Of a stretch of 15,579 nt of DNA, positions 1 through 15,579 are shown piece by piece. The DNA comes from an uncultured candidate division Zixibacteria bacterium (GTDB lineage: Bacteria > Zixibacteria > MSB-5A5 > GN15 > FEB-12). A model generated the notes under the pieces. It saw only the letters and a program-made list of their open reading frames with translations, made no database searches and had not been told where the DNA came from. The stretch spans positions 1-15,579 of the forward strand of contig CAJVYT010000050.1 in assembly GCA_913009765.1 (NCBI GenBank), read 5' to 3'. Position 1 is the stretch's first letter, and every line of letters begins with the position of its first letter. The translations under genes and the position numbers were made by a program.

Positions 1-123
1 AATAGGACATGAGTACTAAAGTGTAGTGTTTTGATTTTTTTTTTTTTTCTTTCGTTTTTTTTTTTAATGATACGGCGACCACCGAGATCTACACTCTTTC
101 CCTACACGACGCTCTTCCGATCT
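1..123. other. Illumina P5 adapter plus T-rich read-through tail (artefact)
   Basis: Bases 66-123 match the 58-nt Illumina TruSeq universal (P5) adapter, from AATGATACGGCGACC to the final GCTCTTCCGATCT. Bases 1-65 are low-complexity and T-rich, as expected when a read runs past the adapter end (poly-A on the other strand). None of this is genomic. Genomic sequence starts at 124. The minus-strand reading frame that runs into the adapter gains a false C-terminus (about residues DRKSVV). Confidence 0.97.
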
Positions 124-2551: not shown

Positions 2552-2680
2552 GATAAAAAATGAGCAATAAGGTCTTATTACTATTAGGTAAGATTTAAAC
2601 TATTAATAAATAAGGAGATAATAAATAATAAAGAGAAGCAGGGAGACAATTAATAACAAAAGTAGTTAAGGAGTAAATGG

Positions 2681-3946
2681 ATGAAAGAACATCTAATGAA
2701 AATTATGGTACTAACAGGAATCGCAATTCTGTGTTCTTTGGTAGTTATCCCAGTAGAGCAGATTGAGGCTATGCCTAATTTTGCCCGTCAGTATGGAACA
2801 ACTTGTTCTCATTGTCATACCATTGTGCCACGTTTGAATCGTACAGGATATGAGTTTAGAAGAGCCGGATATAGAATGCCGAGTGAAATTGGAGAAATTA
2901 GAGAATTTGAGAAAAATCGTGATGAGTTTGATTATACTTCAGGAAATTATTTTGCTGCTCGTCTCCAAATGAACGCTTCTTATAAATCAACAGATATGGG
3001 TTCAGGTCCAACAACCGATGTTTCTAAAATTGAGTTTAAAGAGTTTACCTTGTATCCACTTACAGGTGGTTTTTTAGGTAATTGGGCTTCATTGGCTGAA
3101 ATTAGTGGTTCAACTGATGAGTTAGAAGTAGAAAACGGATATTTGCGTTACGTAACCGGAGATGATAATACTTTCTGGCAAGTACGCGGTGGCTTATTCC
3201 ACCCATTTGAAGGTTATGGTGCTTCTGACAGACCTCTTGGTTTGTCTCGTCCTTTAATTCAATCACAGAAAACTACTAACTCCAACGGAGACGTGAATGG
3301 ATGGCACCCTTGGGGATTTGACCAAACAGGTTTAGAAGCCGGTGTGTCTCATCAGAATTCTTCTATCTCTTTTACTGTTCTCAACGGTCTTATGGATAAC
3401 GCAGAAGACCCGGCTCAGGGCGGTGCTTTGAGCAAATCTGCCGGAAGTCCTACTGAAAACAGTATGGATTTTCAGGTTTTTGCCAATCAGTTTATCGGTA
3501 CTATAAATGCTGCCGTTTCTGCTTATTATTATAACGGTCGGATTGCACTTAGTCCAAGTGATACTATTCCTTTGGCACAGAACGATTTCCAACGCTATGC
3601 TGTATATATAACTATTCCACTCAATACGGCTCAACTGATGGGTGCTTATTCAGGTGGATCTGATACTTATACCGCGACAGATGCCAGCATAAACAATTCG
3701 GGTATGTTTATCGAGTTGGACAATTACTTTAGTCCTAAATTTGGTTCTGGGATCCGTTATGATTCCTTTGACCCTTCTGATATTGCTGACAATGATGTTT
3801 CTTCGGCATTTTCTGTGTTTGCAAATGCTCCATTAAACAATGGTGTACAGTTTATTGTTGAATACAAATATATGAAAACAGAGATGGGAGCAAACCCTGA
3901 CAAAACAACAAATTCTATTAACTTGAGATCTATTTATATTTTCTAA
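2681..3946 (+). CDS. Fused mono-haem cytochrome c / outer-membrane porin (Cyc2-like)
   Basis: A 421-residue secreted protein with three parts. A signal peptide covers about residues 1-30 (cleavage probably after IEA). A short haem-binding segment follows, MPNFARQYGTTCSHCH, with the CxxCH site at residues 42-46, then PRLNRTGYEFRRAGYRMP. The remaining 340 or so residues alternate polar and hydrophobic stretches rich in Gly, Asn, Ser and aromatics, as in a beta-barrel. It ends NLRSIYIF, with the terminal Phe typical of outer-membrane proteins folded by BAM. A single N-terminal haem plus a barrel of this length, and the FARQxG-CxxCH-P-L order, match fused cytochrome-porins such as the iron oxidase Cyc2. 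The donor or acceptor cannot be read from sequence, and porins of this class also occur outside known iron oxidisers. AAGGAG at 2668-2673 fixes the start. Single-gene unit with its own promoter and terminator. Confidence 0.75.
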   Translation: MKEHLMKIMVLTGIAILCSLVVIPVEQIEAMPNFARQYGTTCSHCHTIVPRLNRTGYEFRRAGYRMPSEIGEIREFEKNRDEFDYTSGNYFAARLQMNASYKSTDMGSGPTTDVSKIEFKEFTLYPLTGGFLGNWASLAEISGSTDELEVENGYLRYVTGDDNTFWQVRGGLFHPFEGYGASDRPLGLSRPLIQSQKTTNSNGDVNGWHPWGFDQTGLEAGVSHQNSSISFTVLNGLMDNAEDPAQGGALSKSAGSPTENSMDFQVFANQFIGTINAAVSAYYYNGRIALSPSDTIPLAQNDFQRYAVYITIPLNTAQLMGAYSGGSDTYTATDASINNSGMFIELDNYFSPKFGSGIRYDSFDPSDIADNDVSSAFSVFANAPLNNGVQFIVEYKYMKTEMGANPDKTTNSINLRSIYIF

Positions 3947-3977
3947 GTTAAAAACTATTTTGATTTTGATGTAACTT

Positions 3978-4007
3978 AAAAGCCTATCCATTTGTGGATA
4001 GGCTTTT
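3978..4007. terminator. Strong, probably bidirectional terminator after the cytochrome-porin gene
   Basis: A perfect 13-bp stem, AAAAGCCTATCCA-TTTG-TGGATAGGCTTTT, starts 31 nt after the stop codon. The A-run on the left and T-run on the right would end transcription in both directions. Confidence 0.9.
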
Positions 4008-4100
4008 ATTGTTGAGTCCATATAGCACAACAATATAAATATTATGTTCTAAAAGAAAAATGAAAATTTGGTTGTTTTGTCCAGCCTGTTTTATGGGGGG

Positions 4101-4368
4101 ATAGATTTGTCGGACTGTTGGATGCTAAAGCTGATAGGAAAACAAACAATTTGAGAATTCATAAAAAATGCAATAAAAAAAGCCGCTGTCCGTTCATCAC
4201 GGGAACCGAAGCGCCCATGACGGGGGAGGGAAGTTAGGACAACGGCGATATCTTATTTTTAATATATAACAAGTATCAAAATCTATTTGTCATAGATTTG
4301 TCTAAATTATAGACAAATTCTAACTGTTTAATTCTATGCAAAACCATAAATTAAAGGCAGACAAATAG
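4101..4368. repeat. Cluster of five ATTTGTC / GACAAAT heptamers
   Basis: Direct copies of ATTTGTC lie at 4105-4111, 4285-4291 and 4296-4302; inverted copies lie at 4312-4318 and 4360-4366. Two nested dyads result: ATTTGTCTA-N5-TAGACAAAT (4296-4318), and CTATTTGTC (4283-4291) with GACAAATAG (4360-4368). The 11-mer ATAGATTTGTC occurs at both 4101-4111 and 4292-4302. This looks like a multi-site operator. Confidence 0.55.
4175..4246 (-). ncRNA. Candidate structured small RNA with intrinsic terminator
   Basis: On the minus strand an outer stem, GCCGTTGTCC (4246-4237) with GGACAGCGGC (4191-4182), pairs over 10 bp with one G-U, then runs straight into seven T (4181-4175). Inside is a second hairpin (4221-4196) of about 10 pairs closed by a C-UUCG-G tetraloop, and a C-rich single-stranded stretch, TAACTTCCCTCCCCC. 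On the plus strand the outer stem has a C-A mismatch and no T-run, so the minus strand is favoured. A possible promoter is TTGATA (4279-4274) and TAAGAT (4255-4250), 18 bp apart. I match it to no known RNA family. No gene follows on this strand before the bidirectional terminator, so it is not an obvious leader. Confidence 0.5.
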
Positions 4369-6654: not shown

Positions 6655-7281
6655 ATGGGTATTTCTGAAAGAAAAGAACGAGAAAAACAAAGAAGAATTA
6701 AAGAAATAGTAGATGCTGCTGAGTTGATCTTTTTTTTAAAAGGGTTTAAAAATGCGACTATGGATGAAATCGCACAACAAGCAGAATTGAGCAAAGGAAC
6801 TTTGTATCTCTATTTTAAAAGTAAGGATCATCTATATTCCCAAATAATACAGCGAGCGTGTAGGATACTGTACAATAGATTTGTAGAAGCAGCAGCAAAA
6901 GTCAAACTTGGGGTGGATAAGGTAAATGCCATCGGAGAAGCTTACTACCAATTTTATCTTGATGAGAAAGACTATTTTAATGTAATGATGAGTTTTGAAA
7001 GCAAAGATATACCTATAGAAATTTTTGTATCAATGAAAGCTGATGAAGATTGTGACCCTCATATTGTCTTAATTGAGAGTATAAAAATTGGTGTAGAGGA
7101 CGGTTCTATAAGAAAAGATATTAAACCTAATGAAACTGCTATTATTTTATGGGCTTTTACCACCGGCTTGATGCAGTTAACTTCTCAAAAAAAAGAATTA
7201 TTAGAAGAAGGTTATAATATAGATATTAAGGATATTATTCAACTGGCAGATAAAATAATGAACTACGGAATAAAAGCATAA
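6655..7281 (+). CDS. TetR/AcrR family transcriptional regulator
   Basis: A 208-residue one-domain-plus-ligand-pocket regulator. The N-terminal DNA-binding region is typical: RIKEIVDAAELIFFLKGFKNATMDEIAQQ, then AELSKGTLYLYFKSKDHLY, with the helix-turn-helix at about residues 35-55. The C-terminal half (60-208) is helical and variable, as expected for ligand binding and dimerisation; its ligand cannot be read. No good ribosome-binding site precedes ATG 6655, but the protein begins at the normal distance from the helix-turn-helix. The TonB-dependent receptor gene lies 118 nt downstream on the same strand, making it the likeliest target. Palindromes at 6625-6641 and 7300-7314 are the candidate operators. 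Confidence 0.9.
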   Translation: MGISERKEREKQRRIKEIVDAAELIFFLKGFKNATMDEIAQQAELSKGTLYLYFKSKDHLYSQIIQRACRILYNRFVEAAAKVKLGVDKVNAIGEAYYQFYLDEKDYFNVMMSFESKDIPIEIFVSMKADEDCDPHIVLIESIKIGVEDGSIRKDIKPNETAIILWAFTTGLMQLTSQKKELLEEGYNIDIKDIIQLADKIMNYGIKA

Positions 7282-7299
7282 TATTTTTTTTAAACAACT

Positions 7300-7341
7300 A
7301 TGACTTATAGTCATTAAATTAAACGTCTTACATGATAAGAC
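7300..7341. promoter_or_regulatory. Two palindromes before the TonB receptor gene
   Basis: ATGACT-TAT-AGTCAT (7300-7314) and GTCTTA-N5-TAAGAC (7325-7341) sit in the short gap after the TetR gene. Both are perfect dyads of the size that TetR-type dimers bind. I find no convincing promoter hexamers here. Confidence 0.4.
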
Positions 7342-7399
7342 TGTTAGTATGGGAAATAAGATAAATATAAGAATTTATAATAATTATAACGGAGAAGTA

Positions 7400-9775
7400 A
7401 TGAAACAAATTGGTCTTATTATTTTATGTTTGCTGTTTACTGTGTCAGTAAGTGCAAATGAAAAATCACAAACTGTGAAAGGTCGTATTATTGATTCTCA
7501 GTCTCACTATCCCATTATAGGAGTTACAGTTTTTGTTGTCGGTTCTGATCCGGTGATAGGTAATATTTCTGATGTGGAAGGTTACTACAAACTGTCAAAA
7601 GTGCCACTCGGCAGGATAACCATTCAATTTAGCTCAATAGGTTTTGAACCGATAACGTTGAGTAATATTTTAGTTTCATCAGGGAAAGAAACAGTTATAG
7701 ACGTAGCATTAAAAGAAGATGTTATTATTATTGAACCAGTGCGAGTTGAAAGCGAAGTCGATAAGTCTGCTTCAAATAATGAAATGGCAGCTGTCAGTTC
7801 TAGAGGTTTTAGGGTTGAAGAAACCGGTCGTTATGCCGGGAGTCTAAATGATGTTTCTCGCATGGCAATGAACTTTGCCGGAGTCAGCGGTGCCAATGAT
7901 GCAAGAAATGATATAATTATTCGTGGTAATTCACCTTTTGGGCTTCTATGGGTATTAGAAGGTCTTTCGATACCAAACCCAAATCATTTTGGTTCGCTTA
8001 GTTCAACCGGCGGTCCGGTCAGTATGCTGAATAATAATGTCCTAAAAAAATCCGATTTTCTTACCGGGGCATTTCCGGCAGAATACGGTAACGCTTTGTC
8101 CGGAGTCTTTGATTTAAAAATGAGAAATGGTAATAATGAAAAACGAGAGTATATGCTTCAGTCCGGTTTAAATGGTTTTGAAATAGGCTTAGAGGGACCG
8201 ATTTCTACGAAATCAAAATCTACATATCTGATAAATTATCGGTATTCTGTTTTAGGTTTAGTGGATAAACTCGGTCTTGATTTAGGAACCGGAACTGCCG
8301 TGCCGTATTATCAGGATATATCATTCAAGTTTAATTTCCCCTCTACTAAATTAGGCCAATTTACTCTCTTTGGAGTAGGTGGAATCAGTAATATAGATCT
8401 CTTAACAAGTGACAAAGATGAAATTGAAGATAATAATTTATATCCGTTTGATGATCTTGATGTTCGTTACCAAAGTAAAATGGGTGTAGTAGGATTGAGT
8501 CATGTTATTTTTTTATCAAAAGATGCTTTTTCAAAAACTACCCTTGGTATTTCAGGTATAAATACAGAAAATAAAATGGATACAGTTTTCAGAAGTTCTC
8601 AAAACGAAGTGCTTGATATTCAGCCATATTATAGTGAAGATGAAACCCAGTTAAAATATACTCTTGATAATAAACTGGTAAAAAAATTCAATGCTAAAAA
8701 TGATATTTCACTTGGCTTTACATTCGATATATATGATTTAGACCTTCGGAATAAATCATTGTCAGAATTTAATGTTTATCAAAAGAGTAACTTTAATGGG
8801 ACAACAACCCTTTTTCAAACGTATGCCCAATGGCAGTATCGGATAAATAGTAAACTTACTCTGTTTCCCGGAATTCATTATCAATATTTATTTTTAAACA
8901 GTTCGTCAAAACTTGAACCGCGTTTCGGAATGCAGTTTAAAGTAAATGAAAGACAAAAATTTTCTATTGCTTATGGCAGACATAATCAGATGCAGGGCTT
9001 GAATAATTATTTCAGAGAGACAGTTTTTTCTGATGGTTCTGTTATACAAACAAATAAGAATCTTTATTTTACCACAAGCGAACATTATGTCTTCGGATAT
9101 GATAACAATCTTTCTGAAAATTTGCGGTTAAAGATTGAAACATATTATCAACGTATTTCAAATATACCGACAGAAATAGATTCGTCTTATTTTTCTATGA
9201 TAAACAGTGGTACTGATTTTTATATGCCTGACAAAGATTCACTTGTAAACGAGGGAACCGGTCATAATATCGGGGCTGAAATAACCTTGGAGAAGTTCTT
9301 AAGCAACTCATATTATTTCTTGCTGACAACATCTGTTTTTGACTCAAAATATAAAGGAAGTGACGGAATAGAACGAAACACAGTTTTTAACGGCAATTAT
9401 GTTATAAATGGGTTGTTGGGCAAAGAATTTAAAATGGGTGCCTACAATGCTCTTTCGTTTGATATAAAATTCACTGCTGCAGGCAACAGAAGATATATCC
9501 CGATTGACTTAGATCAGTCTCGTTTAGTAGATACCGCAATATATAAGTTTGATCAATCTTATGAAAACCAGTATAAACCTTATTTCCGTTCTGATTTTAA
9601 AGTTACTTACAGAAAAGAGTCTTCAAGGTTTACACAGGAATGGGTATTAGATATTCAGAACATAACGGATTATAAGAATGTCTATCTTGACAGATATGAT
9701 TCTAAAAATAACACTATCAGAACTTCGTATCAAATGGGTATTTTTCCCATTATACAATACAGATTATTATTTTGA
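7400..9775 (+). CDS. TonB-dependent outer-membrane receptor with carboxypeptidase-regulatory-like domain
   Basis: A 791-residue outer-membrane receptor. Order: signal peptide 1-19 (MKQIGLIILCLLFTVSVSA), a carboxypeptidase-regulatory-like fold at about 26-104 (VKGRIIDSQSHYPIIGVTVF, then YYKLSKVPLG), a plug domain at about 140-245 (IIIRGNSPFGLLWVLEGL; AEYGNALSGVFDLKMR), then a large beta-barrel to the C-terminal Phe (IIQYRLLF). Such proteins import large or scarce ligands using TonB energy. The ligand is unknown, and no SusD partner is present in the window. A longer frame begins at ATG 7349, but GGAGAAG (7391-7397) and the start of the signal peptide point to ATG 7400. The TetR gene upstream and two palindromes suggest repressor control. 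Confidence 0.88.
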   Translation: MKQIGLIILCLLFTVSVSANEKSQTVKGRIIDSQSHYPIIGVTVFVVGSDPVIGNISDVEGYYKLSKVPLGRITIQFSSIGFEPITLSNILVSSGKETVIDVALKEDVIIIEPVRVESEVDKSASNNEMAAVSSRGFRVEETGRYAGSLNDVSRMAMNFAGVSGANDARNDIIIRGNSPFGLLWVLEGLSIPNPNHFGSLSSTGGPVSMLNNNVLKKSDFLTGAFPAEYGNALSGVFDLKMRNGNNEKREYMLQSGLNGFEIGLEGPISTKSKSTYLINYRYSVLGLVDKLGLDLGTGTAVPYYQDISFKFNFPSTKLGQFTLFGVGGISNIDLLTSDKDEIEDNNLYPFDDLDVRYQSKMGVVGLSHVIFLSKDAFSKTTLGISGINTENKMDTVFRSSQNEVLDIQPYYSEDETQLKYTLDNKLVKKFNAKNDISLGFTFDIYDLDLRNKSLSEFNVYQKSNFNGTTTLFQTYAQWQYRINSKLTLFPGIHYQYLFLNSSSKLEPRFGMQFKVNERQKFSIAYGRHNQMQGLNNYFRETVFSDGSVIQTNKNLYFTTSEHYVFGYDNNLSENLRLKIETYYQRISNIPTEIDSSYFSMINSGTDFYMPDKDSLVNEGTGHNIGAEITLEKFLSNSYYFLLTTSVFDSKYKGSDGIERNTVFNGNYVINGLLGKEFKMGAYNALSFDIKFTAAGNRRYIPIDLDQSRLVDTAIYKFDQSYENQYKPYFRSDFKVTYRKESSRFTQEWVLDIQNITDYKNVYLDRYDSKNNTIRTSYQMGIFPIIQYRLLF

Positions 9776-15521: not shown

Positions 15522-15579
15522 AGATCGGAAGAGCACACGTCTGAACTCCAGTCACACTGATATATCTCGTATGCCGTCT
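15522..15579. other. Illumina TruSeq P7 index adapter (artefact)
   Basis: AGATCGGAAGAGCACACG at 15522 starts the TruSeq index adapter, followed by the index bases ACTGATAT and then ATCTCGTATGCCGTCT. Genomic sequence ends at 15521. Confidence 0.98.

What the first reader, a model, noticed from the sequence alone, without database searches (positions are those of the whole stretch)
2681..3946. Single-haem cytochrome fused to an outer-membrane barrel (Cyc2-like)
The sequence shows a signal peptide, one CxxCH within FARQYGTTCSHCH, and a long barrel-like remainder ending in a Phe beta-signal. The order and motif match fused cytochrome-porins; the best-known member, Cyc2, oxidises Fe(II) at the cell surface. 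Finding one here, alone and under its own regulated promoter, suggests the organism moves electrons across its outer membrane. The substrate is not known, and membership of the wider family does not prove iron oxidation.
Basis: partly seen in the sequence, partly recalled or inferred. Interest (0 to 1): 0.75.

Follow-up and report, generated by a model that had tools for sequence, protein, structure and literature searches.

The report
Divergent Cyc2-family cytochrome-porin
The gene encodes an outer-membrane pore with one haem fused to its front end, a member of the known Cyc2 family that can carry electrons between dissolved iron outside the cell and carriers inside; it belongs to a poorly studied branch whose function, iron oxidation or the reverse, is still untested.

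The parts
2681..3946 (+). CDS of the Cyc2-family monohaem cytochrome-porin (421 aa, P0001)
2668..2673 (+). AAGGAG ribosome-binding site, 7 nt before the ATG
   Evidence: sequence
2681..2770 (+). signal peptide, residues 1-30 (...VEQIEA|MPNF)
   Evidence: sequence read by eye; helix 2-21 in model; no signal-peptide program run
2768..2836 (+). Cyc2-defining motif AMPNFARQY...CSHCH...PRL (residues 30-52); haem site CxxCH at 2804-2818
2771..2905 (+). cytochrome domain, residues 31-75; aligns with Sideroxydans Cyc2
   Evidence: hhalign prob 97.7, E 1.9e-12; BLASTP 20 of 45 identical
2954..3940 (+). 16-stranded beta-barrel, residues 92-420
3200..3322 (+). loop between strands 5 and 6 (third outward loop, porin constriction loop), residues 174-214, with clade signature HPFEGYGASDRP...RP (3200-3253) and invariant His174, Glu177, Asp183
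3977..4008 (+). intrinsic-terminator-like hairpin after the gene
   Evidence: -21.8 kcal/mol, z -6.5; the pattern scan did not list it

Best explanation
The gene encodes a secreted, haem-bearing outer-membrane porin of the Cyc2 family. Shown or strongly predicted: signal peptide, one c-type haem site, a 16-stranded OprP/Omp32-like barrel, and a long, highly conserved loop between strands 5 and 6. Inferred: the small haem domain plugs the periplasmic mouth of the pore; a dissolved metal ion, most likely iron, enters from outside as far as the conserved loop (His174, Glu177, Asp183), where it is held close to the haem; one electron crosses between ion and haem and is exchanged with a soluble periplasmic cytochrome c. 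In relatives the next partner is a cytochrome b/Rieske complex or an NrfD-type complex, so the electron probably meets the quinone pool. The likeliest net direction is Fe(II) oxidation (about 0.5), because every characterised Cyc2 does that, but the direction is not shown. The stated confidence covers the whole statement; for family membership alone it is about 0.95.
For: Motif matches the published definition. 277 proteins at E<=1e-3, own included. 16 strands with pLDDT 92.6, and OprO/OprP/Omp32 as structural neighbours; Keffer et al. report OprO/OprP for Cyc2PV-1. The Sideroxydans Cyc2 model (pLDDT 81.2) lists 18 strand pieces, 16 strands if three adjoining pieces are counted as one, and also has a long loop between strands 5 and 6. 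Profile match of the cytochrome domains E 1.9e-12. Loop 174-214 holds 11 invariant columns of 41 against 11 of 289 in the rest of the barrel (Fisher p 7.6e-6, computed after the loop had been noticed). The loop signature is kept even in four loci whose FAR motif is altered (L005, L006, L010, L015). Cytochrome b within 5 kb in 10 of 28 genomes; by my arithmetic about 0.2 expected. NrfD within 5 kb in 4 of 28. Small c-type cytochromes of one cluster in 10 of 39 sequences compared (38 loci and the window). Cytochrome c assembly family in 28 of 28.
Against: The barrel does not align with Cluster 1 Cyc2 even by profiles, so function may have changed. The Cyc2 literature calls Cluster 3 function 'most uncertain', and FeGenie lists it as possible iron reduction too. 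Relatives occur in lineages known for Fe(III) reduction (a Geobacter MAG and Anaeromyxobacter isolates; Geothrix; their physiology is recalled). The excess of invariant columns in the matching loop of the Sideroxydans group is weaker: 10 of 47 against 37 of 314. His174 is missing in 5 of 57 clade rows. In 16 of 28 genomes neither cytochrome b nor NrfD was found within 5 kb. No electron-transfer partner lies in the 15.6-kb window. No coordinates were available, so the distance from haem to His174 was not measured.
Confidence: 0.55

Rival explanations
1. Electron exit: the same protein is a single-haem outlet. Quinol electrons pass through a cytochrome b/Rieske or NrfD-type complex and a periplasmic cytochrome c to the haem, and leave to soluble Fe(III) or another dissolved acceptor that enters the pore.
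For: In relatives the linked genes are of quinol:cytochrome c oxidoreductase type (cytochrome b within 5 kb in 10 of 28 genomes, NrfD in 4 of 28), with COX1 nearby in 0 of 28. The family occurs in Geobacter, Anaeromyxobacter and Geothrix lineages. FeGenie lists Cluster 3 Cyc2 as 'possible iron reduction' and reports it in iron reducers.
Against: bc-type complexes are thought to run backwards in known iron oxidisers (recalled). 0 of 28 for COX1 is no depletion, as only about 0.2 would be expected by my arithmetic. The three biochemically tested Cyc2 oxidise iron.
Confidence: 0.3
2. Detoxification or sensing: the porin oxidises leaking Fe(II) or senses redox state without conserving energy.
For: The gene stands alone with no respiratory partner among the window genes annotated. 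A detoxification role for Cyc2 is mentioned in PMC8446621.
Against: Relatives are repeatedly linked with respiratory complexes. Solitary cyc2 genes also exist in Acidithiobacillus (PMC10654088).
Confidence: 0.12
3. Not an electron conduit: an ordinary porin with a chance CxxCH.
For: Barrel resembles ordinary anion-selective porins.
Against: CxxCH is invariant in 120 of 120 relatives gathered by homology, and the flanking P32, F34, A35 and R36 are kept in at least 90% of them. The 79 of 79 of the tree rows add little, since 48 of them were picked by a pattern holding CxxCH.
Confidence: 0.02

Closest known systems
Cyc2 Cluster 1 (Sideroxydans lithotrophicus P0130 as stand-in; Mariprofundus Cyc2PV-1 characterised, PMC8406198)
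   Same: Signal peptide, one CxxCH, [A]XPXFAR[QK][TY] and PXL motifs, cytochrome domain alignable; its model has a barrel of 16 strands by my count and a long loop between strands 5 and 6.
   Different: Barrel sequence not alignable; loop signature differs (query HPFEGYGASDRP; Sideroxydans type E.LNTGA..HK..G...QH); separate in both trees. That P0130 is Cluster 1 rests on its organism (Gallionellaceae), not on the Cluster 1 HMM.
Cyc2 Cluster 3 (Cyt572 and many uncharacterised homologues, PMC7029218, PMC8406198)
   Same: By elimination the likeliest published cluster; taxa reported for Cluster 3 overlap (Geobacter, Acidobacteria).
   Different: Cluster HMMs and reference sequences were not on hand, so assignment is inference; Cyt572 itself was not compared.
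FARQTG/NNNPTVQD-type cytochrome-porins (L039, L040, L046, L047, L050, L054; perhaps Cluster 2)
   Same: Same cytochrome motif and size; found in the same genomes as query-type genes in G004, G012 and G026.
   Different: Own loop sequence (NNNPT in 5 of 6, NNMPT in 1) and own clade.
OprO/OprP and Omp32 porins
   Different: 9-14% identity; no haem domain.
MtrAB/MtoAB porin-cytochrome complexes
   Same: Electron passage through an outer-membrane barrel (literature).
   Different: 26 strands and a separate decahaem protein; here one fused haem.

Membership tests
Cyc2 fused cytochrome-porins (as defined in PMC8406198) | AXPXFAR[Q/K][T/Y] upstream of the haem site and PXL downstream | tested here: met
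   A30-M-P-N-F-A-R-Q-Y38, CSHCH 42-46, P50-R-L52
Cyc2 fused cytochrome-porins (as defined in PMC8406198) | single CXXCH and at least 365 residues | tested here: met
   one CxxCH, 421 residues
Cyc2 fused cytochrome-porins (as defined in PMC8406198) | fused 16-strand porin resembling OprO/OprP | tested here: met
Cyc2 fused cytochrome-porins (as defined in PMC8406198) | match to a FeGenie Cyc2 HMM | not testable with these tools
   HMMs not held; Pfam and NCBIfam gave 0 families for the query
Cyc2 fused cytochrome-porins (as defined in PMC8406198) | Fe(II) oxidation by the haem | not testable with these tools
   needs purified protein
Cyc2 Cluster 1 (neutrophilic iron oxidisers) | groups with Gallionellaceae Cyc2 in a tree | tested here: not met
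   query clade of 57 rows apart from P0130 and kin: SH-aLRT 99, 96/84 in the careful tree of 62 rows; long branches were warned of
Cyc2 Cluster 3 | groups with Cyt572 and Cluster 3 references | not tested
   no reference sequence of Cluster 3 in hand
Outer-membrane porin | signal peptide, barrel, C-terminal aromatic residue | tested here: met
   barrel by model; signal peptide and terminal Phe read in the sequence

The most novel reading that the evidence does not exclude
The query clade is a functionally distinct branch of cytochrome-porins in which the constriction loop itself completes the redox site: invariant His174 is the second haem ligand or, with Glu177 and Asp183, a metal dock directly over the haem. 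The branch forms a single-haem conduit exchanging electrons between soluble extracellular iron and the quinone pool through cytochrome b/Rieske or NrfD-type complexes, able to run in either direction, and each Cyc2 branch has its own loop signature that predicts its substrate.
Probability: 0.2. Interest if true: 0.7.

Novelty: new member of a known kind. Interest (0 to 1): 0.4.

Why it matters
Cyc2 is used as a marker gene for microbial iron oxidation, yet much of the family has not been tested, and its uncertain part is the one reported as commonest in marine sediments and in a deep mine. A loop signature and a recurrent quinone-linked neighbourhood offer a way to sort the family into functional classes and to choose members for biochemistry; the clade includes cultured Anaeromyxobacter and Geothrix relatives. 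If the clade exports electrons, some 'iron oxidation' calls in metagenomes would be wrong.

Tried and rejected
Pfam and NCBIfam on the query: no family at E up to 10. Pfam on 34 aligned relatives: Porin_O_P in 3 of 34 (best 5.3e-07), BBP2 in 2 of 34 (best 4.3e-05), OMP_b-brl in 3 of 34 (best 0.011); magnetochrome in 6 of 34 at no better than 0.027 and a few others weaker were taken as noise. PDB by sequence: three weak hits at E 0.13 or worse, rejected. Single-sequence scan of genome contigs: no relative; with alignment A1, 38 loci, none titled Zixibacteria. Plasmids by tblastn: 3 records, only the N-terminal cytochrome part, E 0.1-0.9; two of them served as comparison rows. Organism by biotin carboxylase against 24 genomes: best 63%, undecided; by PilT: of the 120 hits listed, 17 carry an organism name, 14 of them Zixibacteria at 76-86% identity, one each FCB group (83%), Calditrichaeota (79%) and 'bacterium' (84%). 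Rfam: one match far below its gathering score, rejected. tRNAs: none. Sigma-70, sigma-54 and repeat scans for a regulated promoter: near chance, or nothing in the upstream gap. Measuring haem-to-His174 distance: not possible, no model file is laid in the box. Paper searches on Cyc2 with alternative complex III or Rieske, Anaeromyxobacter, AlphaFold, Cluster 3 and Zixibacteria, and the first one: several papers in the listing name both Cyc2 and alternative complex III (listing only), so a link of the two is not new in itself. I saw no description of the loop signature in the passages read, but I read passages of ten papers only (sections 11 and 12 of one), figures are not held and supplements could not be read. 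PMC12442345 held none of the terms sought.

Rows dropped before counts: 28 of the 38 loci were handed to (left out: L018, L020, L022-L024, L030, L032, L035, L037, L038). The 32 query-type places are matches to A1 above about 90 bits, with pieces of one gene merged; left out were the low-scoring divergent copies, among them one in G021 about 3.5 kb from a cytochrome b gene, and one further piece on G021 C53. For one search all 54 cytochrome b rows were entered, but only 12 of the NrfD rows and 6 of the COX1 rows; the contig names of the other rows were compared with the query-type contigs by eye and none that lies within 5 kb was seen. The tree used 25 of the 119 other listed relatives, 5 of the Sideroxydans kin, and 48 ORFs of the loci; ORFs under 350 aa, near-duplicates, and loci whose motif the pattern missed (L005, L006, L010, L015) were not in it; these four were looked at by a script afterwards. 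The careful tree left out 17 of the 79 rows (long or near-identical ones); in it the order of the other Cyc2 groups is unresolved (33/8).

Full report
WHAT IS THERE. The ORF at 2681-3946 (+) encodes 421 residues with a ribosome-binding site AAGGAG at 2668-2673. Reading the sequence: a signal peptide to Ala30, then MPNFARQYGTTCSHCHTIVPRLNRTGYEFRRAGYRMP with one CxxCH, then a long remainder ending in Phe. Keffer et al. (PMC8406198; I read sections 11 and 12 and passages) define Cyc2 by AXPXFAR[Q/K][T/Y] upstream of CXXCH and PXL downstream, a minimum of 365 residues, and a fused porin. The protein meets each of these.

THE CONSTRICTION LOOP. Strand 5 ends at 173 and strand 6 begins at 215. In a 16-stranded porin with periplasmic ends this is the third outward loop, which in classical porins folds into the pore (general porin knowledge). 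It is the most conserved part of the barrel: 11 invariant columns of 41, against 11 of 289 in the rest of the barrel and 8 of 45 in the cytochrome domain (the comparison was made after the motif had been noticed). The signature is G-x-F-H-P-F-E-G-Y-G-A-S-D-R-P. His174 is invariant in 120 of 120 rows and is the only His, Met, Cys or Lys invariant outside CxxCH; Tyr125 and Tyr284 are invariant too. In the wider clade of 57 tree rows His174 is kept in 52, Glu177 in 52, Gly178 in 57, and Asp or Glu183 in 57; the five without His174 are the two genes of L016, L032, L033 and L034. Four loci whose FAR motif is altered (L005 FGR, L006 TNFAR, L010 FSR, L015 FTR) still carry the loop signature, so in this clade the loop is at least as well kept as the published cytochrome motif. 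The 22 rows of other Cyc2-type groups lack it: the Sideroxydans group carries its own invariant Glu182 and His204 in the matching loop of its own model (mean pLDDT 81.2; there 10 of 47 loop columns are invariant against 37 of 314 in the rest, a weaker contrast), and six FARQTG-type rows carry NNNPT or NNMPT. That this loop holds the metal or the haem is inference: no model coordinates were available.

PLACE IN THE FAMILY. BLASTP to the Sideroxydans lithotrophicus protein P0130 (found) aligns, beyond noise, only the cytochrome domain: 20 of 45 residues. Profile comparison gives probability 97.7 and E 1.9e-12 over 84 columns, and nothing in the barrel. In a tree of 79 rows the query sits in a clade of 57 (SH-aLRT 99) apart from 12 canonical rows and 10 of a third group; the program warned of long branches, and a careful rebuild of 62 rows kept the clade (96/84; without its outermost rows 100/98 for the query's own ten-or-so-row neighbourhood and others less), while the order of the other groups stayed unresolved. 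The nearest rows are P0002 (85% identity), P0004 and a Gemmatimonadetes MAG (62%). The 38 loci found with the alignment come from Acidobacteriota, Ignavibacteriota, Bacteroidota, Myxococcota (among them two Anaeromyxobacter isolates), a Geobacter MAG, Nitrospirota, Bdellovibrionota, Eisenbacteria, a Gallionellaceae MAG, Elusimicrobiota and others. Several of these genomes hold further Cyc2-type copies; the Gallionellaceae one holds both a gene of the Sideroxydans type and a query-type gene. By elimination the published Cluster 3 is the likeliest home, but its HMM and references were not on hand.

NEIGHBOURS IN RELATIVES. Comparing all ORFs of at least 90 aa in the 38 loci and the window, the recurrent neighbour clusters are, by the Pfam match of one member each, cytochrome b (11 of 39), histidine kinase (11), Rieske (10), small c-type cytochrome (10), response regulator (9), and 4Fe-4S (6), NrfD (6), molybdopterin-type (5) and four-haem proteins (4) that together resemble alternative complex III. 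Counted over 28 whole genomes with family models: cytochrome b (PF00033) occurs in 25, and lies within 5 kb of a query-type gene in 10 (G002, G005, G013, G015, G016, G017, G023, G025, G026, G028), 0.5 to 2.4 kb away; by my arithmetic (54 hits, about 109 Mb, 32 query-type places) about 0.2 would be expected. NrfD occurs in 23, near in 4 (G013, G016, G020, G021). So 12 of 28 have one or the other and 16 have neither within 5 kb. COX1 occurs in 27, near in 0; with about 0.2 expected, zero shows lack of linkage, not avoidance. By contrast the rus operon of Acidithiobacillus puts cyc2 beside the cox genes (PMC10654088, passages). Many contigs are short, so the linked counts are lower bounds. The Pfam cytochrome c assembly family occurs in 28 of 28; one Bdellovibrio MAG has a ResB-like gene right beside the query-type gene. 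For the query's nearest kin the only neighbourhood at hand is the 3.4-kb L001, with a lamin-tail-domain protein upstream and no redox gene seen.

THE WINDOW ITSELF. None of these partners was found in the window. Upstream are PfkB and cytidylyltransferase domains (HldE-like), downstream a dCMP deaminase and glutamine synthetase. A strong hairpin at 3977-4008 (z -6.5) follows the gene. No regulated promoter can be shown. No whole genome is held. The PilT protein of the window is most like unnamed proteins (90-98%); of 17 listed hits with an organism name, 14 are Zixibacteria (76-86%), one FCB group (83%), one Calditrichaeota (79%) and one just 'bacterium' (84%), so the organism is probably Zixibacteria-like; biotin carboxylase against 24 relative genomes did not place it (best 63%).

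WHAT IS ALREADY KNOWN. PMC8478452 (passages) reports from FeGenie that Zixibacteria MAGs at a deep mine have genes for iron oxidation and reduction, and that the iron-oxidation genes at most sites there are Cyc2 Cluster 3; whether the Zixibacteria genes themselves are Cyc2 is not said in the passages I read. PMC9769843 (passages) describes mtrAB in Zixibacteria. FeGenie (PMC7005843, passages) lists Cluster 3 Cyc2 as 'probable iron oxidation and possible iron reduction' and notes it in iron reducers. PMC8446621 (passages) calls the function 'less clear' in taxa without experimental evidence, Acidobacteria among them, and PMC8406198 calls Cluster 3 'most uncertain'. PMC9040806 (passages) discusses Cyc2 as a candidate in manganese oxidisers, so iron need not be the only substrate. 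So a Cyc2-type gene in such an organism is no surprise; what may be new is the loop signature and its contrast between branches.

HOW IT PROBABLY WORKS. Shown by computation: family motif, barrel, loop conservation, linkage in relatives. Inferred from the literature and anatomy: haem domain as a periplasmic plug and dissolved iron entering the pore (both proposed by Keffer et al. for Cyc2), one-electron exchange at the loop, and onward transfer by a periplasmic cytochrome to a quinone-linked complex. Direction undecided: oxidation about 0.5, export about 0.3, other 0.2.

VERDICT. A correct and well-read observation; a new member of a known kind, in a branch whose function is open. Interest 0.4.

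Noticed in passing
window 111-123 (-) and 15522-15534 (+): Exact copies of the Illumina adapter core near both contig ends, giving a spurious protein tail (...RSEEHTSELQSH) on the last ORF; the bases outside them are probably adapter-derived, though only the 13-base core was tested (adapter sequence recalled).
   Followed up: partly
window 4175-4246 (-): Strong G+C-rich hairpin on the minus strand followed by seven T (-31.8 kcal/mol, z -4.5), with no minus-strand ORF of 80 aa or more listed beside it and no Rfam match: possibly a small RNA with its terminator.
   Followed up: partly
L016 (Bacteroidetes MAG WY3.bin23) 9923-16393: Two different Cyc2-type genes in one locus, pointing towards each other, with cytochrome b/Rieske-cluster genes beside one and Fe-S/NrfD-cluster genes beside the other.
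   Followed up: partly
L014, L024, L029, L035 upstream of the cytochrome-porin gene: A gene of the histidine kinase cluster and a 459-510 aa protein of the response-regulator cluster (NtrC-like by size, not tested) lie upstream in the same direction (in L024 with two genes between), hinting at two-component control in these relatives.
   Followed up: no
L043, L044, L045, L048, L049, L051, L052, L056, L057, L058: A third group of cytochrome-porins with the haem motif but yet other sequences at the loop position; very diverse, no function assigned.
   Followed up: no
L005, L006, L010, L015: Relatives with an altered Cyc2 FAR motif but an intact loop signature; a search that demands the published motif would miss them.
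   Followed up: partly
window 6655-9775: A TetR-family regulator next to a TonB-dependent-receptor-like protein with a CarboxypepD_reg domain.
   Followed up: no
L008 4206-5855: ResB-like cytochrome c maturation gene directly after the cytochrome-porin gene in a Bdellovibrio MAG.
   Followed up: partly
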